A stretch of DNA of 64,000 nucleotides from Liquidambar formosana (Eukaryota; Streptophyta; Magnoliopsida; Saxifragales; Altingiaceae), in NCBI GenBank assembly GCA_039720395.1, contig JBBPBK010000105.1, positions 62,001-126,000 on the forward strand. The letters are read 5' to 3'. The notes below the pieces were generated by a model. It was not told where the DNA came from and searched no databases. It saw nothing but the letters and a program-made list of their open reading frames with translations. Numbering within the stretch: position 1 is the first letter of the stretch; the number at the start of each line of letters is the position of its first letter. The position numbers and the translations under genes are program-made. Of this stretch, positions 1 through 43,572 are shown piece by piece.

Positions 1-166
1 AAAGCTCTTATTATCCCTCAAGATCAACTCCAATTTGAACCAAAATTCATATCCATTGTCCTTGTGACTCTAGAAAACTAATGCAAGTGACTAGACTCAA
101 AAACCAAACAAAAACATGCATGAAATGATGAGCCTTAGTAAGGTGGTGCAAAAATGGGGTGTGACA
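1..166 (-). repeat. Element A 3' LTR, start only
   Basis: These bases match 13595-13760, the start of A's 5' LTR, with only scattered changes. The LTR terminus (TGTCACACCCC on the minus strand) is at 166. The rest of the LTR lies left of the window. Confidence 0.9.
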
Positions 167-199
167 GAAGCCCCTCATTGGCGAACAAGTTACACTTGT
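167..199 (-). promoter_or_regulatory. Polypurine tract and adjoining hairpin of element A
   Basis: On the sense (minus) strand CAATGAGGGGCTTC abuts the LTR terminus and is the likely PPT (167-180), though it is only partly purine. Beside it lies a hairpin with arms ACAAGT (185-190) and ACTTGT (194-199). Element D has the same layout with arms GCAAGT and ACTTGC, so the outer pair changed together. Confidence 0.65.
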
Positions 200-269
200 G
201 AACCAATGATAAAGAACAACCCATTTTTGGCCAAAAAGCCCGGAGAAATCACACACTGATACCAACAAT

Positions 270-1790
270 GATGGGAGGTTGAAAACCTGAGACTGAAATA
301 AGGAAGTGTACTCAAGTCATGAGTATACTTAAACCACTGAGGGTTGAGAATTGATAAGAGAAGCATATTCAAGCCACTACGAATGAACATACTTTTGAAA
401 TGGAAAGATATATTCTAGTCACGAATATATTTAACCAAGTGATGAGAATGAAATCTGAGAAGCACATTCAAGTGATGAACATACCTTTGAAATGGAGAAA
501 TATATCCAAGCGATGGATATACTTAACCAAGTAAGTGACAAAATATCTGAGAAGTATACTCAAGTGATGAGAATGAAATTTGAGAAGCACATTCAAGTGA
601 TGAACATACATTTGAAATGGAGAAATATATCCAAGCGATGGATATACTTAACCAAGTAAGTGACAAAATATCTGAGAAGTATACTCAAGTGATGAGTATA
701 CCACTGAAATGGAGAAATATATTCAGGTCACGAATATATTTAACCAAGTAATCTGAGAATGAAATCTGAGAAGTATACTCACGTGGTGAGCATACCATTG
801 AAATGGAGAAATATATCCAAGCGATGGATATATTTTACCAAGTAATCTGAGAATGAAATCTGAGAAGTATACTCAAGTGGTGAGCATACCATTGAAATGG
901 AGAAATATATCCAAGCGATGGATATATTTAACCAAGTAATCTGAGAATGAAATCTGAGAAGTATACTCAAGTGGTGAGCATACCATTGAAATGGAGAAAT
1001 ATATCCAAACGACGGATATATTTAACCAAGTAAGATAAGAATAATCTGAGAAGTGTACTCAAGTGATGAGTACACCATTGAAATGGAGAAATATATATTG
1101 TAGTCACGAATATACTTAACCAAGTAAGTGACAAGTATGTTTAAGTGATAAACATACCATTGAAATAGAGAAATATATCCAAGTGATGGATATACTTAAC
1201 CAAGTAAGTGACAAGTATGTTAAAGTGATAAACATACCATTGAAATAGAGAAATATATCCAAGCGATGGATGTACTTAAGCAAGTAAGATAGAGAATAAT
1301 CTGAGAAGTATACTCAAGTGATGAGTATACCATTGAAATGGAGAAATATATTCAAGTGATGAATATATTTAACCAAGTAAGTGACAAATAATCTGAGAAG
1401 TATGTTCAAGTGATGAACATACCATTGAAATGGAGAAATATACCCAATCGATGGATATACTTAACCAAGTAAGTGACCAAATATCTGAGAAGTATACTCA
1501 AGTGATGAGTATACCATTGAAATGGAGAAATATACCCAAGCGATGGATATACTTAACCAAGTAAGTGATAATGAGGATCTGAAACTAGGAAGCATATTCA
1601 ATGGGCGAACATGCTTTTGAAATGGAAGAATATATTCAAGTGATGAATATATTCAACCAAGTATGATAGAAAATGAGAATTTGAAACTGAGAAGCATATT
1701 CAAAGGGTGAATACACTTTTGAAATGGAAGAACACATTCAAGCGATGAATATATTCAACCAAGTAGGATGAAAAATCAAGATTTGAAATG
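270..1790. repeat. Tandem array of covarying stem-loops (element A)
   Basis: A repeat of roughly 90-100 bp carries two hairpins per unit, joined by near-constant linkers (TTGAAATGGAGAAA and TTAACCAAGTAAGTGA). The loop is nearly always AGTGA or AGCGA, but the arms vary and still pair: GTATACTCA/TGAGTATAC (679-701), ATATATCCA/TGGATATAT (811-833), GTGTACTCA/TGAGTACAC (1053-1075), GTATGTTTA/TAAACATAC (1135-1157), GTATGTTCA/TGAACATAC (1400-1422), AAATATATTC/GAATATATTT (715-741). It lies between the PPT and the antisense ORF. Short ORFs across it are repeat artefacts. Tandem repeats in this 3' region are known from Ogre-type elements; the covarying arms are my observation. Confidence 0.9.
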
Positions 1791-2110: not shown

Positions 2111-2190
2111 AGCGGAAATCCCACTTTGAATAGGAAACTTCCTATTCTGATGGGTTTTTTCCTATTTGAACTTGGATTTGTGACCTTTTT

Positions 2191-2200
2191 CCTATAAAAA
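2191..2200 (+). promoter_or_regulatory. TATA box of the antisense DUF7745-like gene (A)
   Basis: CCTATAAAAA lies about 50 bp upstream of the ATG at 2249. It is followed by ACACATCCAAGAGGTTCC, which is also present in the B and C copies and partly in D. Position and conservation support a core promoter. Confidence 0.7.
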
Positions 2201-2248
2201 CACATCCAAGAGGTTCCTAAACCTACTTGTATTCATTCATTAGAAATT

Positions 2249-3535
2249 ATGGAGGCTCTAGACAAATTTTTAGGAGGGTTTTTGAGAGTTATGAGTGCTG
2301 AAGCAAAATCTGAGTTCAAATGCTTTGGCTTGGATCCATTGCTTTCCTTGAGGCATGTGAGGCTTGAAACGAACCTCTTGACTGTTGCTACATATTTTTG
2401 GGATCCTCAAGTTCATGTGTTCCGCTTCAACTATGAAGAACTGTGCCCAACCATGGAGGAATTCTGTGCATTGTATGGAGTTTCAACGGTAGGTCCTTTC
2501 ATTCTCCCTACTCCTCGCCCAAGCTTTCCTACTTCTTTCTCCAATCTACTTGGGATTCACTCACAATATGCCTCTACGTTTGTAAAGGACCATATGGTAG
2601 ACTTGATGAAATTGGCAACCTCTTTTTTAGCTTGTGATAGTAAAGGTATTCTGAATTTTACCTTTCCTATTAAGCATGCTCTTGCCTTTTGCCTCATTGG
2701 TCGTTTTCTTATTTCCACTGGTACTCCACATGTTCCCATTCAAATCTGTGACTTGATTCCTCTCCTTGCCAAGGGCCATAACTTGATTCCCATGGTGCTA
2801 GCTGAAACCCTGAATGGTTTGGATAAAACTCATGAGGACCCAAAGGTTCCTTTAGGAGGTAGCCCCATTCTACTGCAGATGTGGTTGCTTGAAAGACTGA
2901 ATTTCTTATCGCCTATTGCCATTACATCATACAAGCCCCAGAATTACTGCCTTCGCCGCATTGAACTGCCTGGAGAGTTTTCATTTAGGGATTGGCTAGG
3001 TTACTTCCAAACCCTTTCATGGAGGAATATCAAGTGGTTCGTCTTCATATGGGGCTGCAATGAACGAGTGCTTCTGCGAACTTCTGGATGTGCCATGGTG
3101 AGACTCATAGGACTGAGGTCTACTTCTTTTTATTGGCCTTCAAGGGTTCTGCGTCAGATGGGCGCCATGCAAACCATACCCACTTCCTTGAAAGGTGACT
3201 ATCCTGTGGTGCCCGCGGGTCTTTCTGTAGTGACTTGGGCGAAGGACCGATGGCCTAGCAAGTTGATACTAACCCAAGTTACGAATACTGATGGTCCGTA
3301 TATGATGAGCTCAGAGTATAAGGAATGGTTGAAAAGTAATTTGGGTGAGAGAGAGACTACTCGAAGAGAAAGGATTTTTGGACTTATCAAGAACAATGAA
3401 CTTGGACCTTGCAGAGAAGATATTATGGAAGCAGTAACAACAGCTTATGAACATGACTTGAGGAAGAAAAGAAGACATGAAAGAGAGAAGAAGAAAGCTG
3501 AAGAGCGAGCTGCAAAGAAGCCCAAGAAAAACTGA
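2249..3535 (+). CDS. Antisense accessory ORF, DUF7745-like protein (A)
   Basis: A 428-residue single-exon ORF on the strand opposite to gag-pol. Residues about 50-80 hold the pattern YFWDPQ...FRFNYEELCPTMEEFCALYG, which I associate from memory with the plant DUF7745 family; no search was run. The pattern resembles the core of plant mobile domain proteins (FSFGEMTMTPKDF in the PMD gene at 40433-43098), so it may be a diverged PMD relative. The last 30 or so residues are very basic (LRKKRRHEREKKK, AAKKPKKN), suggesting a nuclear location. The copy has no stop although gag-pol in the same element has four. The start is the first ATG after the TATA box and is shared by all four copies. The molecular function is unknown. 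Confidence 0.85.
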   Translation: MEALDKFLGGFLRVMSAEAKSEFKCFGLDPLLSLRHVRLETNLLTVATYFWDPQVHVFRFNYEELCPTMEEFCALYGVSTVGPFILPTPRPSFPTSFSNLLGIHSQYASTFVKDHMVDLMKLATSFLACDSKGILNFTFPIKHALAFCLIGRFLISTGTPHVPIQICDLIPLLAKGHNLIPMVLAETLNGLDKTHEDPKVPLGGSPILLQMWLLERLNFLSPIAITSYKPQNYCLRRIELPGEFSFRDWLGYFQTLSWRNIKWFVFIWGCNERVLLRTSGCAMVRLIGLRSTSFYWPSRVLRQMGAMQTIPTSLKGDYPVVPAGLSVVTWAKDRWPSKLILTQVTNTDGPYMMSSEYKEWLKSNLGERETTRRERIFGLIKNNELGPCREDIMEAVTTAYEHDLRKKRRHEREKKKAEERAAKKPKKN

Positions 3536-3854: not shown

Positions 3855-4565
3855 TCAAACATGATATTTCTTTAATTGATCCAAATTAGTTGGACGAGCG
3901 AACTCAATTCCATCTAAATCCATGAGGCGAACAGCCCCTGCTGGCAATATTTCTTTGATAATGTATGGCCCACCCCAACTTGGCTTGAATTTTCCCCGCG
4001 GATCGAACACTGGAGCTCTGATTTCTTTCAGCACTACATCCCCTTTCTTTAGACCTCGATCTTTGACATGCTTGTTGAATGCTCTGGCAACTCTCCGTTG
4101 ATACCCCTGAACATGATACAGCGCCCTTAAACGCCTTTCATCTAGCAAAGCTAACTCATCATAGCGGCTCTTAACCTTATCCACTTCTGTTATCTGGCTC
4201 TCCACGGCAACTCTTAGTGAAGGAACTTCCAATTCAACTGGCAACACGGCCTCCATTCCATAAACTAGAGAATAAGGGGTAGCCCCTGTTGATGACCTTA
4301 TTGATGTTCTGTAACCCCATAGAGCCAATGGCAACTTCTCATGCCAGTCTGTGTGTGAGTTCGCAGTCTTCTGTAGTATCTTCTTGATGTTCTTGTTAGC
4401 TGCTTCCACCGCTCCATTAGTCTGAGGACGGTATGGTGACGACAGATGGTGGGCTATGCCATACTTTTGCAAGAGCTCATGGGTTTCTTTCCGAAAGTGC
4501 TGGCCATTGTCTGAGATAACTTCATGCGGTACCCCATATCGATAGATGATGCTGTGCTGTATGAA
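3855..4565 (-). pseudogene. Integrase C-terminal part (A), downstream of an in-frame stop
   Basis: Continues the pol frame after the TAG at 4566-4568. It includes the second catalytic aspartate (SDNGQHF), the RPQTNGAVEAANKN segment with the catalytic glutamate, and the C-terminal region (RKGKFKPSWGGPYIIK-like). It ends at TTKYHV-type residues (LDQLKKYHV) and a stop shared with the other elements. It would be made only by readthrough. Confidence 0.88.
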
Positions 4566-5711
4566 CTATGCTACCTTCTTGGAATTCAAGGTCTTGAAGG
4601 ACGCTGCTTCCACCCACTTAGTGAAGTAGTCGATGGCGACCAGGATGTATTCATGCCCATTTGATGCCTTTGGCTTGATCTGTCCGATGATATCTATCCT
4701 CCATACTGCGAATGGCCAAGGTGATGACATACTCGTTAAAGGCATAGAAGGCAAATGTTGTCCACTGGCGAACAGTTGGCATTTGTGGCACTTCTTGACA
4801 TGTGCGTGGCAGTCTCTTTCCATGGTGGACCAATAATAGCCTAACCTCATGATTTTCTTAGCTAACATATAGCCATTCATATGCGGAGCCCCTGTCCCTT
4901 CATGGATTTCTTTAATCAGATGCTCAGCTTCCTCCTCGGTGACACACAGCAGGTGGATCCCGTCGTATGATCTCCGATATAGCTTTCCTCCACAAAGTAC
5001 ATAGCGACTCGCCAACCGCCTTAGGGTTTTTCTATCGATACGAGATGCTCCTTCTGGGTATTCCCTTTCTTCAATGAACTTCTTTATGTCATGGAACCAC
5101 GGACGGCCATCATTTACCTCTCCTCCTCGGATTGCACAACAGTACACAGGCTTGTCTCGGCATTCTATCACCAACGGCTTCACATTTCCCTCTTTAGGTA
5201 TCTCCACCATGGAGGCTAGGGTCGCCAAGGCATCGGCGAACTGGTTCTTGTTTCTTGAAAGGTAGTTGAACTCTATCTCTGAGAACTCCTTGGTTAGAGC
5301 TTCCAGATAGGCATGGTAAGGCAACAATTTCTCATCTCGAGTTTTCCATTCCCCTTTTATCTGGCAAATGATTAGTGCTGAGTCCCCGAACACTTCCAAT
5401 TCTTTGATCCTCAATTCAAGTGCCGCTTCCAGTGCTAGGATACAGGCCTCATACTCAGCAATGTTGTTGGTAGCTTCGAACCCCAACTTGACCGCTAACG
5501 GTGTAAATGCCTCTTCGGGTGAGACCAGCAGGACTCCTATCCCATAACCTTTCTTATTGGCTGCCCCATCGAAGTATACTCTCCAAGTTTTTCTACCAAT
5601 CTCTAGCACGTCCTCATCTGGGAATTGATCATTGAACGGAGCGGATGATGACACCGGACAGCTGGCTAGGTAGTCTGCGATGACGCTTCCCTTGATAGAC
5701 TTCTGACTCAC
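4566..5711 (-). pseudogene. Archaeal-type RNase H and integrase N-terminal part (A)
   Basis: Lies between two in-frame stops (TAA at 5712-5714 and TAG at 4566-4568). It begins with the tail of the connection region, then an extra RNase H with YFDGAANKKG, AEYEACILALEAAL, GDSALI and NQFADALATLASM, holding all four acidic residues. This second RNase H is the hallmark of Tat-lineage gypsy elements. The integrase zinc-binding segment (HMNGYMLAKK to CHKCQ) and the first catalytic Asp (RIDIIGQ; WGIDIIGQ in relatives) follow. Confidence 0.9.
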
Positions 5712-8700
5712 TTACTTGATGTCGAATTCATTGAGGAGAATTGACCATCGAGCAGTTCTGAATGACAATATTAGCCTTTCTACCAGGTACTTCAACGGGT
5801 CCATGCGACTTATCAAGAACACTTCGAAGGACATCATGTAGTGTCGGAGTTTCTGCGTCGCCCATACTAGTGCCACACAAGCTTTTTCAATCGCATTGTA
5901 CTTCACTTCATAGTCTGTCATTTTCTTGCTTAAGTAATAGATGGCATTCTCCTTTGTAGACCCTTCGAGATATTGAGCTAACATAGCCCCCGTCGCGGTT
6001 TCGGTGACCGTTAAGTATAACAAAAGTGGCGCACCTTGCCGTGGGGGAACTAAGATTGGAGGATTGCTCAAGTATCTCTTAATGGTCTCAAAAGCCTCTT
6101 GGCATTCTTCGTTCCATACTTTTGTCACACCTTTCTTAAGCAATTTGAAGATTGGTTCGCAAACCATGGTTAAGTTGGCAATGAATCGGCTTATGTATTG
6201 AACTCTTCCCAGAAAACCCTGGATCTGCTTCTCAGTGCTAGGCGGCTCCATCTCCACAATAGCTTTTATCTTCCCTGGGTCCACTTTGATACCTCTCTGA
6301 GTGATCATAAACCCCAATAACTTGCCTGCAGTGACACCAAAAGCGCACTTCTGTGGGTTGAGACGGCGATTGTACTTTTTTGCTCGCTCTAGGAATTTCT
6401 CTAGTGCCTTGAAATGCCCTTCTCTATCCACGGACTTTACGATCATATCATCGACATAAACCTCGACTTCTTTATGGATCATATCATGCAATAGGGTCGT
6501 AGCTGCTCTTTGGTAAGTAGCCTCAGCGTTTCTTAAGCCAAAAGGCATTACCTTGTAACAGTACGTTCCCCATTGCGTGATAAAGGCTGTTTTCTCCATG
6601 TCTTGAGGCGCCATCTTTATCTGGTTATACCCGGAGAATCCGTCCATGAAGGAGAGGAGTGCATGTCCCACCGTGCTATCTACCAACACGTCGATATGGG
6701 GTAAAGGAAAGTCATCCTTAGGGCTCGCGGCATTGAGATCTCGGAAGTCGACACACATCCTCACTTTCCCATCTTTTTTAGGCACAGGCACTATATTCGA
6801 CAACCACTCGGGGTACTCCACAACTTGGAGGAAACCCGCGTCTAGTTGTTTAGTTACCTCTTCTTTTACTTTTAGAGCCCATTCTGGTTTTAATCTTCTG
6901 AGTTTCTGCTTTACCGGCTTCTTTAGGGAATTAGTGGGGATATAGTGTTGCACAATATCGGGGTCGATGCCAGGCATGTCTTCATAAGACCATGCAAAAG
7001 CCATAATGTTGGCTTTCAAGAGGGAGATCATCTTTTCTTTTTCAACGGGGGAGAGGGTTTTCCCAATTTTAATTATTCTTGGCAATTCATTCGTCCCTAA
7101 GTTGATTGATTCCAATTCATCCATATTAGGTTCGGTGACGCCCCTTTTCCTTTGCTCAACGAGCTCCGGGGGGACATCGTTCCTAGGATCTATATCCATG
7201 CCATAAATATCCATAGAGGAGAGAAAAGAGACAAAGCTGCTATCAGGTAGGCCAAGGTCTTCTTCTTCATGGATCTCCGCAATGACACCACATTCAAGGT
7301 ACCAATTCAGGAATGGCACGGTAGCATGGCTAATGGATGAACCCTGGAGTTCTTCAATGGTCGAGTCTTCCACGGTGAGGATTATGTCTTGGAACATTTC
7401 AGTCATAGCCCCCGCATCAAGGTTCTCTGCCCAGTCTTCCTCTTTCAAGCTTCCATATAGATCTTGGATAGAGTGGTACCAACTTGTCAAACTTTGAGGA
7501 TTCGGCCCTTCTGTGAAGTATCTATCACCAAAACTTTTATCTGCCACGGCTGGGTCGGAACTTGGATAAAAAGTATATGGGATGTACTGCTTTATAGAAG
7601 AGTAATGGCGTGATGATTCATTCAGCTCTTTCTCAATGCATTGGACATAATCAAACCCAGATAGCGGTATCGTTGCTGATTCAGGTTGTATCTCACATAT
7701 AAGCACACCTGCGAGTTTCAATTCATAGTCCCCTTGAAGTGTTACTATGGCTCCTTCATAAGGAAACTTCACCTTTTGATGGAGTGAAGATGGCACAGCC
7801 CCAGCAGGATGGATCCAAGGTCGGCCCAACATCAAGTTGAAACATGACGGCACATCCAACACTTGGAATTCCACCCTAAATTCAGTGGGTCCCATGATAA
7901 GAGGCAAAGTAACTACCCCTATTACTTCTCGGCGGGTGTTGTCATAAGCTCTTACGGTCTGCCCAGATGGCGTGAAATCAGTGGGTCCCAAACCCAAAAC
8001 AGTGGCAGTTCGGAGAGGACATACATTCAGTGCGGACCCATTGTCGATAAGAACGGTGGGAACCCTCTTCCCCATAGTGTCAACGGTCACATAGAGAGCT
8101 TGAGAATGGCTCGACCCGCTTTTAGGTAGGTCTACATCGGTGAACACGATGGTTGAGTTCTTGGGAGTTGGATTCACCAAATGTACCAATCCCTCGGGGG
8201 ATGTGTCAACAGGCACTTGTATCTGATTCAACAGTTTCAACACGGTCTGTCTGTGCTTATGCGAGGCCATGAGCAAGCCCCAAATAGTAATGTTGGCATT
8301 GGTCTTCTTCAGCTGCCTAAGCACTTCATCCTCTTCTTCTTGCAAGTTAGGACGCCTCTGCCCTTCCAAATCTTCCAACGGATTTTCAGATTCTAGGTGG
8401 GGAGGCTTGAAATGGCGACCCCCTCTGGTTATATGGTCCAACTCATCATCGCTAGCCCATATGTCATGGACTTCCTCGGAGTCATTCATTAAGTCATCCC
8501 ATTCTATCATGTCAATGCTCTCCATCTCTGTCGGCAAGTCATCCCAACCTGAAGGGACTATCGGCTCATCTGATATCGGACTTGGGCTTGAGTACAGCAC
8601 ATAGTAATCATATTTCCCCGACGCTTCACCTAATAGGCCAACTTGAGGATCCCCTGCTTCATATCTTTCTTTCAGCTCTTGTTGGATAGATTTCTTTGGC

Positions 8701-9203
8701 AACAACAAAACCTTTTGGTTAATGAGGTCTTGGATGATCTTCTTTAGTATAGAACAAGCCTCGGTGTCATGGCCGGGTGCACGATGGTATTGGCAATATT
8801 GGTGAGGGATTGATGGTCTTGGCTTTGGTGGAAGTGGCATGATAAGGCTGTTATTGCGGCAAATGGTGAAGAGACGGGTTAAGGTCATGGGGAGCGGAGT
8901 GTATTGTCTTATGGGATGGCGAGGGTGAGAGGATTCAACCCCAATGGCATTTATGGTGTTAGGTGGGGGTGTGTTGTTGTGTGATGGGAGAGGATTACGG
9001 GTGACATTCGGACGGGTTGGTGGTGAAATGACTTGCTTGTCAATGAGGTCTTGGACTTGGTGGCGAAGGCGAATACAGCGATTGGTGGCATGGCCTTTGG
9101 ATTGGTGGTAATTGCAGTACTCATTCTCATTGTAGCTCTTGGGTAAGGGATTTGGTGGAGGTCTTGGGTCGAGTGGCTTCAATAGGTCACGACTTATGAG
9201 CTT
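5712..9203 (-). pseudogene. Nucleocapsid knuckles, protease, RT and degenerate gypsy RNase H (A)
   Basis: Begins after the TAA at 9204-9206. In order: two C-x2-H-x4-H-x4-C knuckles (YCNYHQSKGHATNRC, YCQYHRAPGHDTEAC), an aspartic protease with LIDNGSALNV, a short linker, RT with YVDDMIVKS, and a first RNase H in which the usual DAS motif reads LTVTETATG, so it lacks its first catalytic Asp. The linker has no G-patch segment, unlike B, C and D. The protease-RT joint (LPDSSFVSFLSSMDIYG) is exactly what splicing would produce from the other copies. RT has NAEATYQ where others have NAGATYQ. Confidence 0.92.
7233..7234 (-). other. Precise intron-loss junction (A)
   Basis: On the minus strand AGCTT joins TGTCTCTTTTCTC directly. 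In B, C and D the same two ends are separated by 170-178 bp beginning GTAGGT and ending GCAG. The loss is exact to the base, as expected if A's parent RNA was spliced before reverse transcription. Confidence 0.9.
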
Positions 9204-10283
9204 TTAAAGGACTCTTTCGAGTGGCATGAATAGGTCAGTGAATTGGCGAGGTGGGTTGACATCATTGAGAGAAAAGGGTTGGATTGGTTGAGTTATGGTG
9301 TTGACCTCGGCATTGTTCTTCCCAGTAAAGTTTGTCTTGCGACTCCTCACTTCCTCAGTCTTGATTGTCCCATCATTGATAGCATCTTCAATCTGCATGC
9401 CAGCCCCAATGAGAGCTTTGAAATTTGGGAAATAGTGGGCAAATAGGTGCTTGTGATACATGGGCAGCAGGTTCTTAACCACTAACTGAATTTGGTCCTC
9501 CTCATTCGGCCTATCCGTCATTCTCGACGCCTTTTGTCTCCACCTTGTAATGTAAGCGGAGAAAGTTTCATAAGCCCCTTGCTTGGTAGTTTCTAGGTCC
9601 CTTCGAGTAACGTCCACCTCTGTGTTATACTTGTAGTGCTCTGAAAACTCATTGCATATGTCTTCCCAAGTCCGGGTTCTATTCTCATCCAAGGATAAAA
9701 ACCATTTCAAAGCAGAAGTGGCCAAGGTTTCATAGAACATTTGAGCTAAAAGCTCGTCAGTAGCCCCTCGAGGGTGCATAGCTCGCACGTACATCTTCAA
9801 ATGAGTCTTAGGGCAACCCATCCCATCGAACTTTTCTAACTCCGGCATCTTGAATTGTAGTGGAATACGAGCTGTTGGAAACAGGGATAGAGTCCGCACA
9901 TCGACCATGTCATCAGCCCTGCGAATCCCTTTTATGGTTCTCTCCAAAGCTTCTACCTTGCTAGCTAACACGGAATCACTGCTAGTACCTTTCCCCTTGG
10001 CTTCCCCTTCTAGGTTGGTGACCTCAGGTTTCGAGCTACTTTCCCCCCTTGTCTTGGTGTTCTCATTGGATTGAGGTCCCTCTTCGGTGCCAGCCCCATG
10101 AGGTATACCCGAGGAATGGGCCTTAGAGCCATTTTGTTCAAGATCCGCCATCTTCTGTTAGTTCTCTTGAGCCATTTTCAATGCGGTATCGGATGTCTCG
10201 GCGGTATGGTCAAGTTTGGCCATGATGGCTTTCAGGCAAGCCTCAAGGTCAAAGTGCCCCTCACTAGTTCTTTCGTCGGCCAT
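9204..10283 (-). pseudogene. Gag, capsid region (A), with two in-frame stops
   Basis: The likely start is ATG 10283 (MADERTSEG), aligned with MADEATSEG in D. A TAA at 10158-10160 and another at 9204-9206 interrupt the frame. The body has the retrotransposon gag core (LKMYVRAMHPRGATDELLAQ, ALKWFLSLDENRTRTWEDIC, DVTRRDLETTKQGAYETFSAY). The second stop is also present at the matching place in B (14377-14379), so it predates the split of the two copies or was transmitted by a defective lineage. Confidence 0.88.
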
Positions 10284-11156: not shown

Positions 11157-11225
11157 AACTGTGGACCCCGGAAATTGGGCCCACAAGGGATTGAAAGAAA
11201 ATGGGTTTGAAAAAGAAAAAGGAAA

Positions 11226-11235
11226 GGAGTCGCCA
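11226..11235 (-). other. PBS-like echo inside the LTR (A)
   Basis: TGGCGACTCC, the first ten bases of the true PBS, occurs inside the LTR about 70 bp before its end. The same echo is in B (26799-26808) and D (35139-35148, 53199-53208). Confidence 0.6.
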
Positions 11236-11637
11236 CCATATTTTTTAAAGGAAACAAGGAAAACCCTAAAAATAGTTTGTTTTAGGAAAACAATTTGAAT
11301 GACTCCATAAAAAAGGAAAGGCAAAAACCAATCTTTTGAAAACCAAAGAAATCGGGGATTCGGAGGCTAAGTTATGACATGGGAAGGTTCTAGGCAAAGC
11401 CTATAGGCACCCATGTCACCCTTTCGGTCTCTCAGTTCATTTGGGCTAAATCAAGGTCTTTCCATACAAAAATCAGCAAGTATATCATCACAAGAATTGC
11501 ATGCATATCATATATTTCATTCATCCATCCATGCATAATAAGCACATAAAAACAGAAAAAGAAAAAGAAGAAAACAAAACAAAAATAAACCTAGGATGCT
11601 TGGATCCTAGAACGGACTTGAGCCTCACGAAGAGCGC

Positions 11638-11684
11638 CTACGTACCATGCAACGAAATACATGGATCAAAGTCCACGTAGTTCG
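11638..11684. other. CTACGTA-type hairpin in the LTR (A)
   Basis: CCTACGTACCATG and CATGGATCAAAG...ACGTAG can pair on each side of a short AC-rich loop. The same frame (CCTACGTA ... ACGTAGTTC) occurs at the convergent gene ends of every gypsy element here. It may mark a transcript end or other RNA structure. Confidence 0.55.
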
Positions 11685-13135
11685 ATTAGAACTAAGGTTA
11701 AATCCTAATACAAACCTATGGTAAAAACCCTAGGTTTCCTTATTTGATCAAAAGAGAATTGATAGAAAGTTTGATTTTAGGAAAGAAATCCACAAAATGG
11801 AAACCTTAATAAAAACCAGAATTTTGTTTATGAAGGAAACCTCTAATTAAACCATAGGATCATATTAAAAATTAACCCTAAAGAGGGAGAAGAGGAAGGA
11901 TAAGGAAGAGAGGTGAATTGGGGCACCTTCACACCCACTTACCTGAGCGCAATTACTCCAAACATTAGCTATTTCAGACATAAGCAGCCCTATTTGCCAT
12001 AGGACAAATACCACACCTATTTGTACCCTTACAAGTGCTCAAAACCATGCAAAAACACTAACATGCAAATCTGGACAGAATAGTATTATCACCTAAAATC
12101 ATCCACTAAGCATGCCAATAGCAAAAACAGCGAACAATAATAAGTCCTAACATATTCCTAGAACCATATCATGCATAAAAACCCTAGAACATACTAATAT
12201 GCATGCAAAACTATCATGTTTACTCTATATGCAAGACCTATACAGCAAACACGAAGAAAAACCAAATAAAAAAGTCTACTTTATCATGCTATATGAAAAC
12301 AAGTACAAAACAATGACTCTAAAACCCTAAACTCACAAATATGCTTAAAAACATACAAAACATACTTTAATCATGCTAAAACCAAACTAAACAGAAATTA
12401 AATCATGCATATTAACTAACTAAAGCAATATAACATGATGAAAATCCTAACTCTAACATGCAATGACACTAATCCTAGCACAAGGACAAACAGGAGCACA
12501 AGAATCATAACTATGCATTAAAAACCTAAAGGACAGCCCTAAAGCATGCTAAACAGTAGATAAAAAATAGATATTCCATGTATATTAACTAGCTAGAGTG
12601 TTAATACATGATAAAAAAGTTACCTTTAACATGCAATAAGCCTAACCCATATGAAAACCTAGTTTAAGCTTGAATAGAGAAGGAGAATAGCTTAGGAAGG
12701 GCCTTCCTTTGTGTTTGTAATTGTTCGTGGCTCCTCAGGTCTTTAGAGTGAATCAAACCAACACGAATCCTCCTCTTTGTCAAAGTAGTATCACAGCAAA
12801 GAGATCAAAACTCACTCAACTTTGAAAAGAAATAGAAAACAAAAAGAGAACAAGAGAAAAGAAAAGTGATTTTCGTCACTTTGCAGCAGCAGCAACTTCA
12901 ATCGCATTTTTGGGTATGAAAACGTTGGATTTGGACAAAGCTTGTGAAATAGAAAGTTGTAGAGAATTGAATTATCTTTCTAACAAGACCAATTTCATCA
13001 AATTCTGACTTCGGATGAAAAAGTTATGATTAAAATACGACTGCTGGTTTTCAGAAAATCTGCTGCTGAATTATGACGAATTTCACTCCCTCCAGACCCT
13101 CTTCTCCTCTCTCTTGTTTAAAGACATTAAGAGAG

Positions 13136-13346
13136 TATTTATAGCTGAAATCTGGAGTTTCCCTTTCCTTCCTGGACTAGGTTTCCTTGGAGAATAATCA
13201 AAAGGTATTTTATAATGATAAAAGACTTCTAATCTGAATAGGAAAAGGAAATTGTCTTTTATAAAAATTGGGAGACTGACCGCTAACACGCATGCACATG
13301 TATCGTATGTGCGTACACACACTCATCACATACGTACACGTGTTAG
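13136..13346 (-). promoter_or_regulatory. LTR promoter with AC/GT-rich palindrome (A)
   Basis: TATAAATA (13136-13143, minus strand) is preceded upstream by an imperfect palindrome with arms CTAACACG (13283-13290) and CGTGTTAG (13339-13346) and inner arms around CACATACGTAC. It takes the place that the GC-rich palindrome has in D's LTR. Confidence 0.65.
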
Positions 13347-13760
13347 TGTCATGATAAAAATGGCTAATTTAATAAAATAATTTTCTTTTCATTTTAACCA
13401 AAAATCTCATGCTGTGATTCGCACTAATTCTTCAAGGATAATCCGTAAATAACCACACTAAACTCATCATCAGGGCCACGGGACTTAAGTACCTCATATG
13501 CATCCATATGAACTCCAATTGACAATTTGGAGATCATTCCAAGGTCAAATGAAAAGTTTGGGACTTAAAAGACGATTATGCCCCTCAAGTCACAAAAGCT
13601 CTTATTATCCCTCAAGATCAACTCCAATTTGAACCAAAATTCATATCCATTGTCCTTGTGACTCTAGAAAACTAATGCAAGTGACTAGACTCAAAAACCA
13701 AACAAAAAAATGCATGAAATGATGAGCCCTAGTAAGGTGGTGCAAAAATGGGGTGTGACA

Positions 13761-14379
13761 GACGGGTTGCCCTAAGACTCATTTGAAGATGTACGTGCGA
13801 GCTATGCACCCTTGAGGGGCTACTGACGAGCTTTTAGCTCAAATGTTCCATGAAACCTTGGCCACTTCTGCTTTGAAATGGTTCTTATCCTTGGATGAGA
13901 ATAGAACCCGGACTTGGGAAGACATATGCAATGAGTTTTCAGAGCACTACAAGTATAACACAGAGGTGGACGTTACTCGAAGGGACCTAGAAACTACCAA
14001 GCAAGGGGCTTATGAAACTTTCTCCGCTTACATTACAAGGTGGAGACAAAAGGCGTCGAGAATGACGGATAGGCCGAATGAGGAGGACCAAATTCAGTTA
14101 GTGGTTAAGAACCTGCTGCCCGTGTATCACAAGCACCTATTTGCCCACTATTTCCCAAATTTCAAAGCTCTCATTGGGGCTGGCACGCAGGTTGAAGATG
14201 CTATCAATGATGGGACAATCAAGACTGAGGAAGTGAGGAGTCGCAAGACAAACTTTACTGGGAAGAACAATGCCGAGGTCAACACCATAACTCAACCAAT
14301 CCAACCCTTTTCTCTCAATGATGTCAACCCACCTCGCCAATTCACTGATCTATTCATGCCACTCGAAAGAGTCCTTTAA
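13761..14379 (+). pseudogene. Gag, partial (B)
   Basis: Starts mid-gene at TGCPKTHLKMYVRAM, with everything upstream displaced by A. A TGA at 13813-13815 replaces the CGA (Arg) of D, a CpG-type change. The rest of the gag core is open to the TAA at 14377-14379, which A shares. Confidence 0.9.
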
Positions 14380-22002: not shown

Positions 22003-22269
22003 ACTTTGTTTTGGTTTTGCTTCTCGCTTTGTCTCGCCTTGACGCGTGATCAAACCTCCTTCCAAATGAGATATTCAACACTTTTTGAGCTTAAAATCAA
22101 TCAAATTCCATCTTGAAATCAATTCCTTGAATTGATTTTATGTTCAAAAGGGTTGAATATATTTCCCCTGTGTCATGCCAACTCAAGTGACAATGTGTTA
22201 AGTCACTTTCCTCTTGCACCATGCCTATTCAATCTTGATAAATTGATCATATATCCTCATTTCAAATCT

Positions 22270-24170
22270 TGATTTTTCATCCTACTTGGTTGAATATTTT
22301 CATCACTTGAATGTGTTCTTCCATTTCAAAAGTGCATTCACCCTTTGAATATGCTTCTCAGTTTCAAATTCTCATTTTCTATCATACTTGGTTGAATATA
22401 TTCATCACTTGAATATATTCTTCCATTTCAAAAGCATGTTCACCCATTGAATATGCTTCCTAGTTTCAGATCCTCATTATCACTTACTTGGTTAAATATA
22501 TTCATCACTTGAATATATTTCTCCATTTCAATGGTATACTCATCACTCGAGTATACTTCTCAGATATTTCGTCACTTACTTGGTTAAGTATATCCATCGC
22601 TTGGGTATATTTCTCCATTTCAATGGTATGTTCATCACTTGAACATACTTCTCAGATCATTTGTCACTTACTTGGTTAAGTATATCCACCACTTGGGTAT
22701 ATTTTTTCCATTTCAATGGTATGTTCATCACTTGAACATACTTCTCAGATCATTTGTCACTTACTTGGTTAAGTATATCCACCACTTGGGTATATTTTTT
22801 CCATTTCAATGGTATACTCATCACTTGAGTATACTTCTCAGATATTTTGCCACTTACTTGGTTAAGTATATCCATCGCTTGGGTATATTTCTCCATTTCA
22901 ATGGTATGTTCATCACTTGAACATACTTCTCAGATTATTTGTCACTTACTTGGTTAAATATATTCATCACTTGAATATATTTCTCCATTTCAATGGTATA
23001 CTCATCACTTGAGTATACTTCTCAGATTATTCTCTATCTTACTTGCTTAAGTACATCCATCGCTTGGATATATTTCTCTATTTCAATGGTATGTTTATCA
23101 CTTAAACATACTTGTCACTTACTTGGTTAAGTATATCCATCACTTGGATATATTTCTCTATTTCAATGGTATGTTTATCACTTAAACATACTTGTCACTT
23201 ACTTGGTTAAGTATATTCGTGACTAGAATATATTTCTCCATTTCAATGGTGTACTCATCACTTGAGTACACTTCTCAGATTATTCTTATCTTACTTGGTT
23301 AAATATATCCGTCGTTTGGATATATTTCTCCATTTCAATGGTATGCTCACCACTTGAGTATACTTCTCAGATTTCATTCTCAGATTACTTGGTTAAATAT
23401 ATCCATCGCTTGGATATATTTCTCCATTTCAATGGTATGCTCACCACTTGAGTATACTTCTCAGATTTCATTCTCAGATTACTTGGTAAAATATATCCAT
23501 CGCTTGGATATATTTCTCTATTTCAATGGTATGTTTATCACTTAAACATACTTGTCACTTACTTGGTTAAGTATATCAATCACTTGGATATATTTCTCTA
23601 TTTCAATGGTATGTTTATCACTTAAACATACTTGTCACTTACTTGGTTAAGTATATTCGTGACTAGAATATATTTCTCCATTTCAATGGTGTACTCATCA
23701 CTTGAGTACACTTCTCAGATTATTCTTATCTTACTTGGTTAAATATATCCGTCGTTTGGATATATTTCTCCATTTCAATGGTATGCTCACCACTTGAGTA
23801 TACTTCTCAGATTTCATTCTCAGATTACTTGGTTAAATATATCCATCGCTTGGATATATTTCTCCATTTCAATGGTATGCTCATCACTTGAGTATACTTC
23901 TCAGATATTTTGTCACTCACTTGGTTAAATATATTCGTGACCTGAATATACTTCTCAATTTCCAAGGTACGTTCATCACTTGAACGTACTTTTCAGATCT
24001 CATTCTCATCACTTGGTTAAATATATTCGTGACTAGAATATATTTCTCCGTTTCAAAAGTATGTTCATTCGTAGTGGCTTGAATATGCTTCTCTTATCAA
24101 TTCTTAACCCCCAGTGGTTTAAGTATACCCATGACTTGAGTACACTTCCTTATTTCAGTCTCAGGTTTTC
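22270..24170. repeat. Tandem array of covarying stem-loops (B)
   Basis: The same repeat family as 270-1790 in inverse orientation, with more units. Arms change pairwise around TCACT or TCGCT loops: GTATGTTTA/TAAACATAC, GTACTCA/TGAGTAC, ATATTCG/GAATAT. Unit-length blocks are also duplicated (the stretch near 23160-23290 recurs near 23580-23710), so the array grows by unequal exchange or copy-choice. The short ORFs here (YIHHLGIFFPFQW and similar) are repeat artefacts. Confidence 0.88.
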
Positions 24171-24270
24171 AACCTCCCGTCATTGTTGGTATCAGTGTGT
24201 GATTTCTCCGGGCTTTTTGGCCAAAAATGGGTTGTTCTTTATCATTGGTTCACAACTGTAACTTGTTCGC

Positions 24271-24284
24271 CAATGAGGGGCTTC
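24271..24284 (+). promoter_or_regulatory. Polypurine tract (B)
   Basis: CAATGAGGGGCTTC directly before the 3' LTR start TGTCACACC, identical to A's PPT. Confidence 0.6.
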
Positions 24285-26874
24285 TGTCACACCCCATTTT
24301 TGCACCACCTTACTAGGGCTCATCATTCCATGCATGTTTTTGTTTTGTTTTTGAGTCTAGTCACTTGCATTAGTTTTCTAGAGTCACAAGGACAATGGAT
24401 ATGAATTTTGGTTCAAATTGGAGTTGATCTTGAGGGATAATAAGAGCTTTTGTGACTTGAGGGGCATAATCGTCTTTTAAGTCCCAAACTTTTCATTTGA
24501 CCTTGGAATGATCTCCAAATTGTCAATTGGAGTTCATATGGATGCATATGAGGTACTTAAGTCCCGTGGCCCTGATGATGAGTTTAGTGTGGTTATTTAC
24601 GGATTATCCTTGAAGAATTAGTGCGAATCACAGCATGAGATTTTTGGTTAAAATGAAAAGAAAATTATTTTATTAAATTAGCCATTTTTATCATGACACT
24701 AACACGTGTACGTATGTGATGAGTGTGTGTACGCACATACAATACATGTGCATGCGTGTTAGCGGTCAGTCTCCCAATTTTTATAAAAGACAATTTCCTT
24801 TTCCTATTCAGATTAGAAGTCTTTTATCATTATAAAATACCTTTTGATTATTCTCCAAGGAAACCTAGTCCAGGAAGGAAAGGGAAACTCCAGATTTCAG
24901 CTATAAATGTCTTTAAACAGGGGAGAGGAGAAGAGGGTTTGGAGGGAGTGAAATTCGTCATAATTCAGCAGCAGATTTTCTGAAAACCAGCAGTCGTATT
25001 TTAATCATAACTTTTTCATCCGAAGTCAGAATTTGATGAAATTGGTCTTGTTAGAAAGATAATTCAATTCTCTACAACTTTGTATTTCACAAGCTTTGTC
25101 CAAATCCAACGTTTTCATACCCAAAAACGCGATTGAAGTTGCTGCTGCTGCAAAGTGACGAAAATCACTTTTCTTTTCTCTTGTTCTCTTTTTGTTTTCT
25201 ATTTCTTTTCAAAGTTGAGTGAGTTTTGATCTCTTTGCTGTGATACCACTTTGACAAAGAGGAGGATTCGTGTTGGTTTGATTCACTCTAAAGACCTGAG
25301 GAGCCATGAACAATTACAAACACAAAGGAAGGCCCTTCCTAAGGTATTCTCTTTCTCTATTCAAGCTTAAACTAGGTTTTCATATGGGTTAGGCTTATTG
25401 CATGTTAAAGGTAACTTTTTTATCATGTATTAACACTCTAGCTAGTTAATATACATGGAATATCTATTTTTTATCTACTGTTTAGCATGCTTTAGGGCTG
25501 TCCTTTAGGTTTTTAATGCATAATTATGATTCTTGTGCTCCTGTTTGTCCTTGTGCTAGGATTAGTGTCATTGCATGTTAGAGTTAGGATTTTCATCATG
25601 TTATATTGCTTTAGTTAGTTAATATGCATGATTTAATTTCTGTTTAGTTTGGTTTTAGCATGATTAAAGTATGTTTTGTATGTTTTTAAGCATATTTGTG
25701 AGTTTAGGGTTTTAGAGTCATTGTTTCGTGTTTGTTTTCATATAGCATGATAAAGTAGACTTTTTTATTTGGTTTTTCTTCGTGTTTGCTGTATATGTTT
25801 TTCATATGGAGTAAACATGATAGTTTTGCATGCATATTAGTATGTTCTAGGGTTTTTATGCATGATATGGTTCTAGGAATATGTTAGGACTTATTATTGT
25901 TCGCTGTTTTTGCTATTGGCATGCTTAGTGGATGATTTTAGGTCATAATACTATTCTGTCCAGATTTGCATGTTAGTGTTTTTGCATGGTTTTGAGCACT
26001 TGTAAGGGTGCAAATAGGTGTGGTATTTGTCCTATGGCAAATAGGGCTGCTTATGTCTGAAATAGCTAATGTTTGGAGTAATTGCGCTCAGGTAAGTGGG
26101 TGTGAAGGTGCCCCAATTCACCTTTCTTCCTTATCCCTTCTCTTCTCCCTATCTAGGGTTAATTTTTAATATGATCCTATGGTTTAATTAGAGGTTTCCT
26201 TAACCAACAAAATTCTGGTTTTTATTAAGGTTTCCATTTTGTAGATTTCTTTCCTAAAATCAAACTTTCTATCAATTCTCTTTTGATCAAATAAGGAAAC
26301 CTAGGGTTTTTACCATAGGTTTGTATTAGGATTTAACCTTAGTTCTAATCGAACTACGTGGACTTTGATCCATGTATTTCGTTGCATGGTACGTAGGCGC
26401 TCTTCGTGAGGCTCAAGTCCGTTCTAGGATCCAAGCATCCTAGGTTTATTTTTGTTTTGTTTTCTTCTTTTTCTTTTTCTGTTTTTATGTGCTTATTATG
26501 CATGGATGGATGAATGAAATATATGATATGCATGCAATTCTTGTGATGATATACTTGCTGATTTTTGTATGGAAAGATCTTGATTTAGCCCAAATGAACT
26601 GAGAGACCGAAAGGGTGACATGGGTGCCTATAGGCTTTGCCTAGAACCTTGCCATGTCATAACTTAGCCTCCGAATCCCCGATTTCTTTGGTTTTCAAAA
26701 GATTGGTTTTTGCCTTTCCTTTTTTATGGAGTCATTCAAATTGTTTTCCTAAAACAAACTATTTTTAGGGTTTTCCTAATTTCCTTTAAAAAATAAGGTG
26801 GCGACTCCTTTCCTTTTTCTTTTTCAAACCCATTTTCTTTCAATCCCTTGTGGGCCCAATTTCCGGGGTTCACA
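24285..26874 (+). repeat. Element B 3' LTR
   Basis: 2590 bp, TGTCACACC... to ...GGGGTTCACA. It carries the AC/GT-rich palindrome (arms CTAACACG 24699-24706 and CGTGTTAG 24755-24762), a TATA-like CTATAAATG (24901-24909) that lost about 9 bp relative to A, the CTACGTG/ACGTAG hairpin (26351-26398) and the PBS echo (26799-26808). Confidence 0.92.
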
Positions 26875-37624: not shown

Positions 37625-38330
37625 CTCTGTCAGCATATGCCCATTTTTGACCCCTTTGACTTCTAAATGTGTTTTAGGGTTCAAATTAACTCCGATTTTG
37701 ACGAAACGAAAGCCAAAACGACTGTGTTTCGAAGGGGAATGTAATTTGAGTCACTTGAAGGCAAGAAACCCTAGCCATGGCTGCATGGTTGGGTCCTACA
37801 AAGGTGGTTAACCGCTATGCCTCACCATCGCTTAGCTTAGGTATGCACATAGGGTTGCACCGAATGCTTTCCAATTCGAAATTCAACCTCCCTAAACACA
37901 TTTGGGGATGAAATTAAGACCAATCAAGGTCAAATGAGTAGTCATAGAGTGAAAATCATGAACCAATTCGAGCTAACCCGAAATAGGTCTCTTAGCCAAC
38001 CTGAGCCTTATTGAGCCATTCTAATCCCGAACCTTCAATTCATCGAATTGAACCCACAAATACCTCAAATACAACCATATGAACTCCAATTGGCAACTTG
38101 GGGATCATTTCAAGGTCAAATGGAAAGTTTGTGATCAAAAAGACGATTATGCCCCTCAAGTCACAAAAGTTCTTATTAACCCTCAAGATCAACTCCAAAT
38201 CGAACCAAAATTCATACACACCATCCTTAGGACCCTAGAAACTCAATGCAAAAGACTAGACTCAAAAAGGAAACAAAAAGACACATGCAATGACAAACCC
38301 TAGCTAAGGTGGCAAAAATGGGGTGTGACA

Positions 38331-38363
38331 GAAGCCCCTCATTGGCGAGCAAGTTTCACTTGC
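38331..38363 (-). promoter_or_regulatory. Polypurine tract and adjoining hairpin (D)
   Basis: CAATGAGGGGCTTC beside the LTR, as in A, and a hairpin with arms GCAAGT (38349-38354) and ACTTGC (38358-38363). In A the arms are ACAAGT and ACTTGT. The next 30 or so bases (AACAACCCATTTTTG) are also shared. Confidence 0.62.
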
Positions 38364-39990
38364 GAACCAATGACCAAAAGAACAACCCATTTTTGCCCGG
38401 GGAATTGATTTCATCAAGACCCACTGGGGAAAAGAGGGTGATCACATCATTGAATTCTTCGAATTCATCATACACAAGCACAAAGGTACTCTTCATAAGT
38501 TCTACAGAACTCCTCTCATACTGTATACCAGTTTCACTGGGGAACAAGATGAGGTATCCACAGGTTACATCGAACTTCGTTCGATGAAAGGTCTTCCAAT
38601 TCTATGCCAGTGACAACTGGCGAATGGTACGAGGTAACATTATGCCATCAAGGCCATCCCAAAATATGAGAAAGATACATCCTTCTCACATTCAAACCGT
38701 CAAGGTTATTACTCAATTATCAAGGTAATCACATCCCATACTGCACCAGTGACAACTGGTGAATAATACGAGGTATCCATAGCTTACATCGAACTTCGTT
38801 CGATGAAAGGTCTTCCCATACTATGCCAGTGACAACTGGCGAATAGTACGAGGTATCCATAACTTACATCGAACTTCGTTCGATGAAAGGTCTTCCCATA
38901 CTGTACCAGTGGCAACTGGTGAATAGTACAAGGTATCCATAGCTTACATCGAACTTCGTTCGATGAAAGGTCTTCCCATACTGTACCAGTGACAACTGGT
39001 GAATAGTACAAGGTATCCATAGCTTACACCGAACTTCGTTCGATGAAAGGTCTTCCCATACTTTGCCAGTGACAACTGGCGAATAGTACGAGGTAACACC
39101 ATGCCATCAAGGCTATCTCAAAATATGAGAAAGATACATCTTCTTATATTCAAACCATCAAGGTTATCATTGAAATATCAAAGTAAATCACATAACACGA
39201 GAAAGATCACGTCCTTCTCTTGCTCAAATCAATCAAGGTAAACACATACCACAGGAAGCCATCAAGGCTATCTCAAAACATGAGAAAGATACATCCTTCT
39301 CATATTCAAACCATCAAGGTTATCATTCAATTGTTAAGGTAGTCACATAGTACGAGGAAGGTCACAACCTTCAATCAGGGTAAACACATACCATTGGGAA
39401 AGATCGCATCTTTCAAGTTATCAAGGTAAACATGTGACATGAGAAAGATTGCATCCTTCTCATATCAAACTCTCAAGGTGAACACATAGCATGAGAAAGA
39501 TCGCGTCCTTCTCATAATCAAACCATCAAGGTCAACATAAATCATGGGAAAGATTGCATCTTTCAAGTCATCAAGGTAAGCATGTAATCATGAGAAAGAT
39601 TTCATCTTTCTCTCACTAAGTCATCAAGACAAAGGTAAGCTTTTACTTACCAACACACAACAAGTTCACCAAGTCATCTCACAGGGAGGCTATTCACGCC
39701 TCAACTCAAACACCAACTCATATAGGAGACACAGTTATCTCATGAAAGCAATCATTCACATGCATATAGGGAAGGTATCTTTATCCCAAAAGACAACGAA
39801 TCATAGTGACATAGGAGGGAATTCATCCCTAATGATAAAAAATCATATGCATAGAGAGGGTTGTTCAACCCTACTAGCATGCCATGCCCACACAAAGGCT
39901 ACCAATGCAATCTATTTCAAAACCATTTCAAGTCAAACAATATCAAGATATTCACTCATTTTTCAACTCAAAACATGCTTGAGATTTCAT
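38364..39990. repeat. Array of covarying stem-loops (D)
   Basis: Same position as in A and B but unrelated sequence. An 80 bp period (38787, 38867, 38947, 39027) carries CATCGAAC/GTTCGATG around TTC and GCCAGT/ACTGGC (38825-38840), which becomes ACCAGT/ACTGGT (38905-38920). Further on, hairpins change every 40-60 bp: GAAGGT/ACCTTC (39357-39372), GAGAAAGAT/ATCTTTCTC (39592-39612), AGGGTT/AACCCT (39857-39872). Linkers such as CATCAAGGTAA repeat between them. No credible ORF. Confidence 0.87.
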
Positions 39991-43098: not shown

Positions 43099-43572
43099 GT
43101 TTCACTCACCTCTTGTTAGGAATGTTTGGAACTTACTATCTTCTTGTCATGTACTAATTAGGAATTTCGATTCCCAACCTTGAACCTTTATTATGGATAC
43201 TTGATGAATCTATGTTGAACTTTATTGCAATGATATGATCTTGTATTGTGTGAAAAATGGGCTTAAATCAAGCATAAATGAGTCAAAACATCACGAAAGG
43301 GCCAAACAAAGGCATAACAAGGCAAAAATGGGCGAAAGAAGACGGCGGCCTCGGGTGACCACCTGGGGCTGGGCGGCTAGCCGCGTGGGCCCAGGCGGCT
43401 AGCCGCCCAGGCCTGGGTGGTCACCCGAGCCCGAAGCGGTGTTTCGCCTGATTTTAGGAAACTTTCTATTTTGACGGGATTCCACCTTCCAAAACACGGA
43501 TTTCCGAATTTTTTCCTATAAAAGCACATCCAAGGGGTCTCAAACCCTACTAACATTCATTGGGAGCAAGTT
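43099..43572. promoter_or_regulatory. Intergenic promoter region with GC-rich palindrome (D)
   Basis: Palindrome 43347-43434 with outer arms CTCGGGTGACCACC and GGTGGTCACCCGAG and inner GGCGGCTAGCCGC blocks around GTGGGCCCA. TATAAAAG is at 43517-43524, about 50 bp before the ATG. It is the largest and most symmetric copy of the module. Confidence 0.75.

What the first reader, a model, noticed from the sequence alone, without database searches (positions are those of the whole stretch)
270..1790. Hairpin array with covarying arms in element A
Each unit has hairpins whose loop and linkers are nearly constant while the arms differ between units and remain complementary, often with two-base compensated changes (TACTCA/TGAGTA, TGTTCA/TGAACA, TGTTTA/TAAACA, TATCCA/TGGATA). 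Neutral tandem repeats should lose pairing as they diverge. Either structure is selected (genomic RNA, siRNA source, protein binding) or a mechanism such as template switching within a hairpin copies one arm onto the other.
Basis: seen in the sequence. Interest (0 to 1): 0.9.

Follow-up and report, generated by a model that had tools for sequence, protein, structure and literature searches.

The report
Covarying RNA hairpins in plant retrotransposon
The end of a common plant jumping gene carries a row of about thirty small hairpins whose two sides have changed together, which suggests that long-unexplained repeats in such elements are kept as RNA structure.

Summary
Window 270-1790 is a tandem array (main unit 92-94 bp) of alternating 9-11-bp hairpins in the 3' untranslated region of a minus-strand Ogre-type Ty3/gypsy LTR retrotransposon, between an antisense plant-mobile-domain ORF and the polypurine tract. 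Arms covary: 7 of 18 pair columns have two Watson-Crick states, and pooled tree-based nulls are not reached (0/400; 0/5000). Single pairs are weak: one of 3,916 column pairs has E<=0.05 (a stem pair). In gag-pol-sense RNA, G.U exceeds A.C among shared hairpins (36:10) but not among new single-locus mutations (20:22; p=0.004, types not independent). Composition-corrected folding favours the sense strand in A and B (22 of 22 overlapping windows) but not in related element D (2 of 7). So selection on sense RNA is the best reading, ahead of arm copying, DNA palindromes or siRNA. All 20 sampled junctions carry the array. D has different tandem hairpins, also covarying, at the same place. Tandem repeats there are known in Tat/Ogre elements, function unknown; covarying structure in them was not seen in my paper searches. 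Function is inferred: a cis-acting RNA element for export, protection or packaging. Correction: hairpin-2 loops vary more than its arms.

The parts
270..1790 (-). Hairpin array of element A, in the 3' untranslated region of the gag-pol-sense RNA (minus strand); two alternating kinds of hairpin (H1, H2) per ~92-bp unit
158..208 (-). Start of 3' LTR (TGTCACACC), polypurine tract and a conserved hairpin directly 5' of it; the inner stem has an A-U/G-C compensated difference between elements A and D
2249..3535 (+). Antisense ORF with plant mobile domain (PF10536, E 6.4e-16)
2193..2200 (+). TATA-like box upstream of the antisense ORF; the array lies upstream of it on that strand
   Evidence: sequence; promoter function inferred
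3855..9203 (-). Protease/RT/RNase H/integrase coding region of element A (three open stretches of one frame separated by stops)
   Evidence: domains by similarity to element D
9204..10157 (-). gag of element A
   Evidence: by similarity to element D gag
11160..13762 (-). 5' LTR of element A (98.1% identical to the LTR of element B; ends may be a few bases off)
22256..24068 (+). Same array in element B (opposite orientation)
24243..24293 (+). Polypurine tract, adjacent hairpin and 3' LTR start of element B
38734..39095 (-). Tandem hairpin array of different sequence (80-bp unit, two hairpins) at the same place in element D
39420..39612 (-). Second hairpin array (about 53-bp unit) of element D, again of different sequence
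38322..38372 (-). Polypurine tract, adjacent hairpin and 3' LTR start of element D
43567..44859 (+). Antisense plant-mobile-domain ORF of element D

Best explanation
The array is a run of about 30 RNA stem-loops in the last two kilobases of the genomic/gag-pol RNA of an Ogre-type LTR retrotransposon. SHOWN: location, hairpin array, pooled covariation of arms, G.U in excess of A.C in the gag-pol-sense strand of shared hairpins, presence in all 20 sampled copies, and hairpin arrays of different sequence at the same place in a related family. INFERRED: the pairing is kept by selection on the sense RNA while the element multiplies; single changes that leave G.U are tolerated and often completed later, those that leave A.C are mostly lost. 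Tandem duplication and loss of units change the hairpin number (arrays cut at 1.1 to 2.2 kb), so the number is not critical. INFERRED, less sure: it serves as a cis-acting RNA element near the 3' end that lets the long, partly intron-retaining genomic RNA be exported, protected from decay and/or packaged, as transport elements and direct repeats of simple retroviruses do.
For: Covariation: tree-based count of 10 double Watson-Crick to Watson-Crick changes on single branches (null mean 2.4, largest 8 in 5,000; partner columns co-change 0.50 per possible change against 0.095 for 381 non-partner column pairs). Pooled covariation 191 against 48 (0/400) and standard pairs 95.9% against 85.1% (0/400) on 46 units shared by >=2 of 60 loci; the same test on 41 hairpin types gives 122 against 31 (0/400). 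Strand: G.U:A.C is 36:10 in 41 hairpin types shared by >=3 loci against 20:22 in single-locus one-step mutants, Fisher p 0.004; G.U share 0.74 against null 0.53, reached by 7 of 1,000. Outside the arms, G.U-type and A.C-type substitutions are about equal, 24 against 27, so mutation bias does not explain it. On the tree G.U goes on to Watson-Crick 6 times, A.C once. Composition-corrected z is stronger on the sense strand in 10 of 10 overlapping windows of array A and 12 of 12 of array B, and in 19 of 23 3' regions. Presence: 20 of 20 sampled junctions carry the array, the last linker 249-251 nt before the end of the junction motif in 19. Independent case: element D has hairpins of different sequence (best match to the A/B arrays E 0.76) with their own compensated differences (GCCAGU..ACUGGC/ACCAGU..ACUGGU; AACC..GGUU/AGCC..GGCU). 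Negative control: a 182-bp tandem repeat in D's LTR has z +0.6.
Against: Few independent events: 7 of 18 pair columns have two Watson-Crick states; one of 3,916 column pairs is significant by itself; the count of such columns does not exceed the unit null (40/400; 9/400 for hairpin types). A minimum spanning network of common types has 13 G.U and 11 A.C single steps, and G.U and A.C occur in 13 and 8 of 18 columns. The Fisher p was 0.04 with an earlier set (types in >=4 loci, a misaligned type included); I then used >=3 loci and dropped that type, after seeing the first result. The raw energy advantage of the sense strand (40 of 40 copies; 22 of 23) is not specific: it holds in 11 of 13 regions, controls included. 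Composition-corrected, element D leans to the antisense strand: 5 of 7 windows, -7.3 against -5.3 for its 80-bp array (its 53-bp array goes the other way, -1.8 against -4.2), -9.2 against -4.4 for its 3' region. Locus L062 has only three linkers and leans to the antisense strand, as do L052 (slightly) and L061 (8 shuffles each). No RNA data; function is by analogy.
Confidence: 0.62

Rival explanations
1. Arm copying: template switching or snap-back synthesis within a hairpin, during reverse transcription or DNA replication, copies one arm onto the other, so palindromes perfect themselves without any function.
For: Explains complementary changes at neighbouring pairs at once (H1 pairs 5-6; types listed); many stems are perfect; [quoted passage not shown] element D shows no consistent sense-strand preference after composition correction.
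Against: DNA copying does not distinguish G.U from A.C, yet shared types show 36:10 and the tree null is reached by 7 of 1,000. On the tree, G.U goes to Watson-Crick 6 times, A.C once.
Confidence: 0.17
2. DNA-level function: palindromic protein sites or cruciforms upstream of the antisense gene, which has a TATA-like box about 50 bp before its start codon.
For: The array lies directly upstream of the antisense ORF; a TATA-like box is present in A and D.
Against: Different arms coexist within one array, so a sequence-specific reader of the arms is unlikely, and H2 loops vary; a DNA structure would be blind to G.U against A.C.
Confidence: 0.09
3. No selection: a few ancestral palindromes were shuffled and spread by unit duplication and block exchange; the counted compensations are inherited copies of very few events.
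For: Array length differs between copies; per-pair significance is low; single-locus mutants break pairs freely (20 G.U, 22 A.C, 13 other from Watson-Crick).
Against: Seven of 18 pair columns have complementary states; whole-structure nulls on a tree fail to reach the observed pairing (0/400); arrays of different sequence in element D do the same.
Confidence: 0.1
4. Source of small RNAs: hairpins processed by Dicer-like enzymes.
For: Hairpin-rich, repetitive element.
Against: Stems of 9-14 bp are far shorter than known Dicer substrates (recalled); unlimited pairing span lowers the energy only from -400 to -444 kcal/mol in A, so no long duplex; no Rfam family matches the window. No small-RNA data were at hand.
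Confidence: 0.02

Closest known systems
Hypervariable tandem-repeat 3' untranslated regions of Tat/Ogre/Retand LTR retrotransposons (Macas 2009 as cited in PMC7004042; PMC11963269)
   Same: Same position (pol to 3' LTR), tandem units of tens to hundreds of bp, family-specific sequence, variable length, antisense ORF beside it
   Different: The words hairpin, stem-loop and secondary structure do not occur in PMC11963269, nor hairpin or palindrom in PMC7004042; origin and function are called unknown (PMC11963269 Discussion). Here the repeats are hairpin units with compensated arms.
Constitutive transport element of Mason-Pfizer monkey virus and direct repeats of Rous sarcoma virus (PMC3856414, passages)
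   Same: Cis-acting structured or repeated RNA used by the unspliced genomic RNA of simple retroelements; the 3' location is recalled, not in the passages seen
   Different: One or two elements, not an array of about 30; binding to TAP/NXF1 or any export protein untested here; no sequence relation claimed
Arrays of identical hairpins used as multivalent protein-binding tags (MS2 type; recalled)
   Same: Many similar stem-loops in a 3' untranslated region
   Different: Here H2 loops vary more than H2 arms, so a single loop-reading protein is less likely

Membership tests
Ogre clade of Ty3/gypsy (Tat lineage) | Additional RNase H (aRH) between RNase H and integrase (shared with Retand) | tested here: met
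   Element D pol: RT_RNaseH 432-534, RVT_3 585-703, integrase H2C2 796-851, rve 871-967; criterion from PMC6317226 passages
Ogre clade of Ty3/gypsy (Tat lineage) | Extra ORF with plant mobile domain (57% of Ogre elements in PMC6317226) | tested here: met
   PF10536 in the antisense ORFs of A and D
Ogre clade of Ty3/gypsy (Tat lineage) | gag-protease and RT-RH-INT in two ORFs separated by an intron-like stretch | tested here: inconclusive
   Element D has two ORFs (48775-52422 and 45222-48692); splicing not tested
Ogre clade of Ty3/gypsy (Tat lineage) | RT-RH-INT phylogeny | not tested
   No reference set used
Hypervariable tandem-repeat 3' UTR of Tat elements | Tandem repeats between pol and 3' LTR, family-specific | tested here: met
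   D differs from A in unit
Retroviral constitutive transport element | Recruits a cellular export factor and rescues unspliced RNA | not testable with these tools
   Needs an export assay
Small-RNA (siRNA/miRNA) hairpin precursor | Stem of roughly 20 bp or more (recalled) | tested here: not met
   Stems 9-11 bp, up to 14 with the interrupted outer helix; little gain from long-range pairing
Any described RNA family | Rfam covariance model match at gathering score | tested here: not met
   0 matches to 4227 families over the window

The most novel reading that the evidence does not exclude
The tandem arrays of Tat/Ogre elements are in general a class of retroelement RNA element: rapidly re-invented chains of stem-loops, selected for structure and not sequence, read by the element's own antisense-coded plant-mobile-domain protein or Gag in a Rev/RRE-like manner; satellite DNAs derived from these arrays would inherit the hairpins.
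Probability: 0.08. Interest if true: 0.9.

Novelty: new variant of a known kind. Interest (0 to 1): 0.6.

Why it matters
Tandem repeats between pol and the 3' LTR are common in Tat-lineage elements, seed satellite DNAs (PMC7004042, passages) and have no known origin or function (PMC11963269). If they are kept as RNA structure, the question becomes directly testable by probing and by comparing arrays across species, and the hypervariability of these regions reads as free sequence change under a structural constraint.

Tried and rejected
Per-pair covariation with a tree-based null: one significant pair of 3,916, so the claim rests on pooled tests. Raw strand energies were first taken as strong evidence for the sense strand; on recount they favour it in 11 of 13 regions, controls included, so only composition-corrected values and G.U/A.C counts are used, and confidence was lowered from 0.66 to 0.62. 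In one search A.C starting states were lumped with other mismatches; one search recounted them (A.C to Watson-Crick once). A loop-reading protein as the main explanation was dropped because H2 loops vary more than H2 arms. Dicer substrate rejected. A plant-mobile-domain family search of the genome, meant to bring in more element families, did not complete, nor was an antisense-ORF protein search (not repeated) or the count of polypurine-tract hairpin variants; a third family was not tested.

Rows dropped: one search kept 1,152 of 1,263 hairpin positions; one search kept 1,728 of 2,488 (760 dropped), by loop likeness only, never by arm pairing. One search used 39 of 194 distinct units; (diversity) used 46 of 304 (those in two or more loci). 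One search used the 41 of 173 hairpin types found in three or more loci, after leaving out one misaligned type. Alignment A1 used 30 of 31 window units (the 125-bp unit left out).

Paper searches bearing on structure or hairpins in such repeats: (listings, most of them capped: titles, abstract starts); searches were for export elements and Ogre introns. Word searches within papers. None showed covariation or RNA structure in these arrays; only open-licence papers are held. PMC11963269: first part of the text, Discussion and passages; PMC7004042, PMC6317226, PMC3856414 and PMC10309623: passages only; other papers: listings only.

Full report
What is there. Coordinates 1-13762 hold an LTR retrotransposon on the minus strand (element A): 5' LTR about 13762-11160, gag 10157-9204, protease to integrase 9203-3855 in three open stretches, an antisense ORF with a plant mobile domain at 2249-3535, the hairpin array at 1790-270, a hairpin and polypurine tract next to the LTR start at 208-158, and the 3' LTR running off the window. 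A second copy, element B, lies inverted from 13762 (its gag cut off there) to 26874 and carries the same array at 22256-24068. A relative, element D (LTR copies 99.8% identical), lies at about 35035-56014. The order RT, RNase H, second RNase H, integrase and the plant mobile domain point to the Ogre clade (criteria from PMC6317226 passages). RT phylogeny was not done.

The array. Each unit of about 92 bp has two hairpins, called H1 and H2 here. In the gag-pol-sense strand H1 is nine pairs around a five-base loop, such as GTATACTCA-TCACT-TGAGTATAC; H2 is such as ATATATCCA-TCGCT-TGGATATAT. H2 extends by an interrupted outer helix (TGG..CCA) in the consensus fold. At positions set by linkers and loop likeness, 26 of 29 in A and 35 of 38 in B keep at least 8 of 9 standard pairs.

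Chance. Folding with a span of 60 gives, for 700-1300, z -15.8 on the sense and -10.6 on the antisense strand; of 13 regions tested only the arrays and the stretch between array and antisense ORF fall below -3 on either strand, and a 182-bp tandem repeat in D's LTR gives +0.6. A scan of 425 windows has median z near 0 and 52 windows at -4 or lower; the 20 at about -7 or lower lie in the arrays of A (9), B (10) or D (1).

Covariation. RNAalifold on 30 window units finds 24 pairs, 7 with both sides changed. Counted for that structure on 22 distinct rows, 97.3% of cells pair; sliding the partners by one to three columns gives 32-55% and one pair with both sides changed instead of seven; 500 column shuffles never reach four of five measures and reach the fifth, the number of further pair types, in 499. 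With 39 units shared by at least two of 40 loci, a tree and parsimony give 10 double Watson-Crick to Watson-Crick changes against a null mean of 2.4 and a largest of 8 in 5,000. With 46 units from 60 loci the pooled covariation is 191 against 48 and standard pairing 95.9% against 85.1%, none of 400 simulations reaching either; the number of columns with two Watson-Crick states (8) is reached by 40 of 400. Pair by pair, one of 3,916 column pairs is significant (E 0.017) and it is H2 pair 7. The pooled case is therefore strong and the single-pair case weak, as expected with few substitutions per column.

Strand. In the sense RNA a G.U pair is allowed and A.C is not; on the other strand they trade places. 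Hairpin types found in at least three loci have 36 G.U and 10 A.C cells. Types found in one locus and one step from a common type, which should be mostly mutations after insertion, have 20 and 22 (Fisher p 0.004, and 0.04 with an earlier set of types in at least four loci that still held a misaligned type). Under a tree null the G.U share is 0.53 and the observed 0.74 is reached by 7 of 1,000. Substitutions outside the arms show no such bias (24 G.U-type, 27 A.C-type). On the tree G.U goes on to Watson-Crick 6 times and A.C once. After composition correction the sense strand folds better in 10 of 10 overlapping windows of array A and 12 of 12 of array B.

Against this: a spanning network of common types has 13 G.U and 11 A.C single steps; the types are not independent; raw energies favour the sense strand in 40 of 40 copies and 22 of 23 but also in 11 of 13 regions, controls included, so they count for little; and element D after correction leans to the antisense strand (5 of 7 windows), as do loci L052, L061 and L062. 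The sense-RNA reading is thus better supported for the A-type array than for D.

Spread. A 25-base motif over the polypurine tract and LTR start occurs 3,431 times at up to three mismatches (control 0); a linker motif occurs 11,580 times exactly (control 0). The first 20 listed exact junctions, all on contig C1, were fetched: 20 of 20 carry at least three linkers (19 carry 12 to 20, L062 three), the last one starting 249-251 nt before the end of the motif in 19 of 20. Element D has at the same place an 80-bp unit and a 53-bp unit (156-bp in two relatives) of different sequence (best match to the A/B arrays E 0.76), each made of hairpins, with compensated differences such as GCCAGU..ACUGGC and ACCAGU..ACUGGU, and AACC..GGUU and AGCC..GGCU. 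The hairpin just before the polypurine tract differs between A and D by a compensated pair.

Reading. Different arms within one element speak against a protein that reads arm sequence. Stems are too short for Dicer (recalled), and long-range pairing adds about 11% to the energy. Arm copying in reverse transcription would explain complementarity but not the G.U excess. Selection on the sense RNA is the simplest account. Why the element needs it is inferred: retroelements must export and protect unspliced genomic RNA (PMC10309623, passages), simple retroviruses use cis-acting RNA structures and direct repeats for this (PMC3856414, passages), and Ogre elements splice an intron from only part of their transcripts (PMC6317226, passage). 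That different hairpins stand at the same place in element D suggests that structure, not sequence, is what counts.

Known or new. Tandem repeats in this place are a known and common feature; [quoted passage not shown] My searches (listings; word searches) showed no report of covarying structure in them. I file it as a new variant of a known kind.

Noticed in passing
158-208, 24243-24293, 38322-38372: A conserved hairpin sits directly 5' of the polypurine tract in all three elements, with an A-U/G-C compensated pair between families A and D.
   Followed up: partly
2193-2200 (and upstream of 43567): TATA-like box just upstream of the antisense plant-mobile-domain ORFs in A and D: the antisense gene may have its own promoter, with the array upstream of it.
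   Followed up: no
L062, 1767-1641 nt upstream of the end of the polypurine-tract junction motif: A different short tandem array (31 bp, containing TTTCAGCCGTCTGAAA) that is itself hairpin-forming; this copy keeps only three linkers of the main array.
   Followed up: partly
36548-37014 and 54608-55074: 182-bp tandem repeat inside the LTRs of element D; the first copy was folded and has no fold signal.
   Followed up: partly
41121-41828: Additional plant-mobile-domain ORF in the 3' region of element D (PF10536, E 1.1e-24), a second one besides 43567-44859.
   Followed up: no
2040-2100, 28185-28243, 37566-37607, 43372-43413, 55626-55667: GC-rich repeat of about 22 bp with a palindromic core (GGCGGCTAGCCGCC-like) near the antisense ORFs and in LTRs.
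   Followed up: no
56251-56700: Stretch outside the elements' 3' regions with strong local folding on the plus strand (z -6.2), several hairpins.
   Followed up: no
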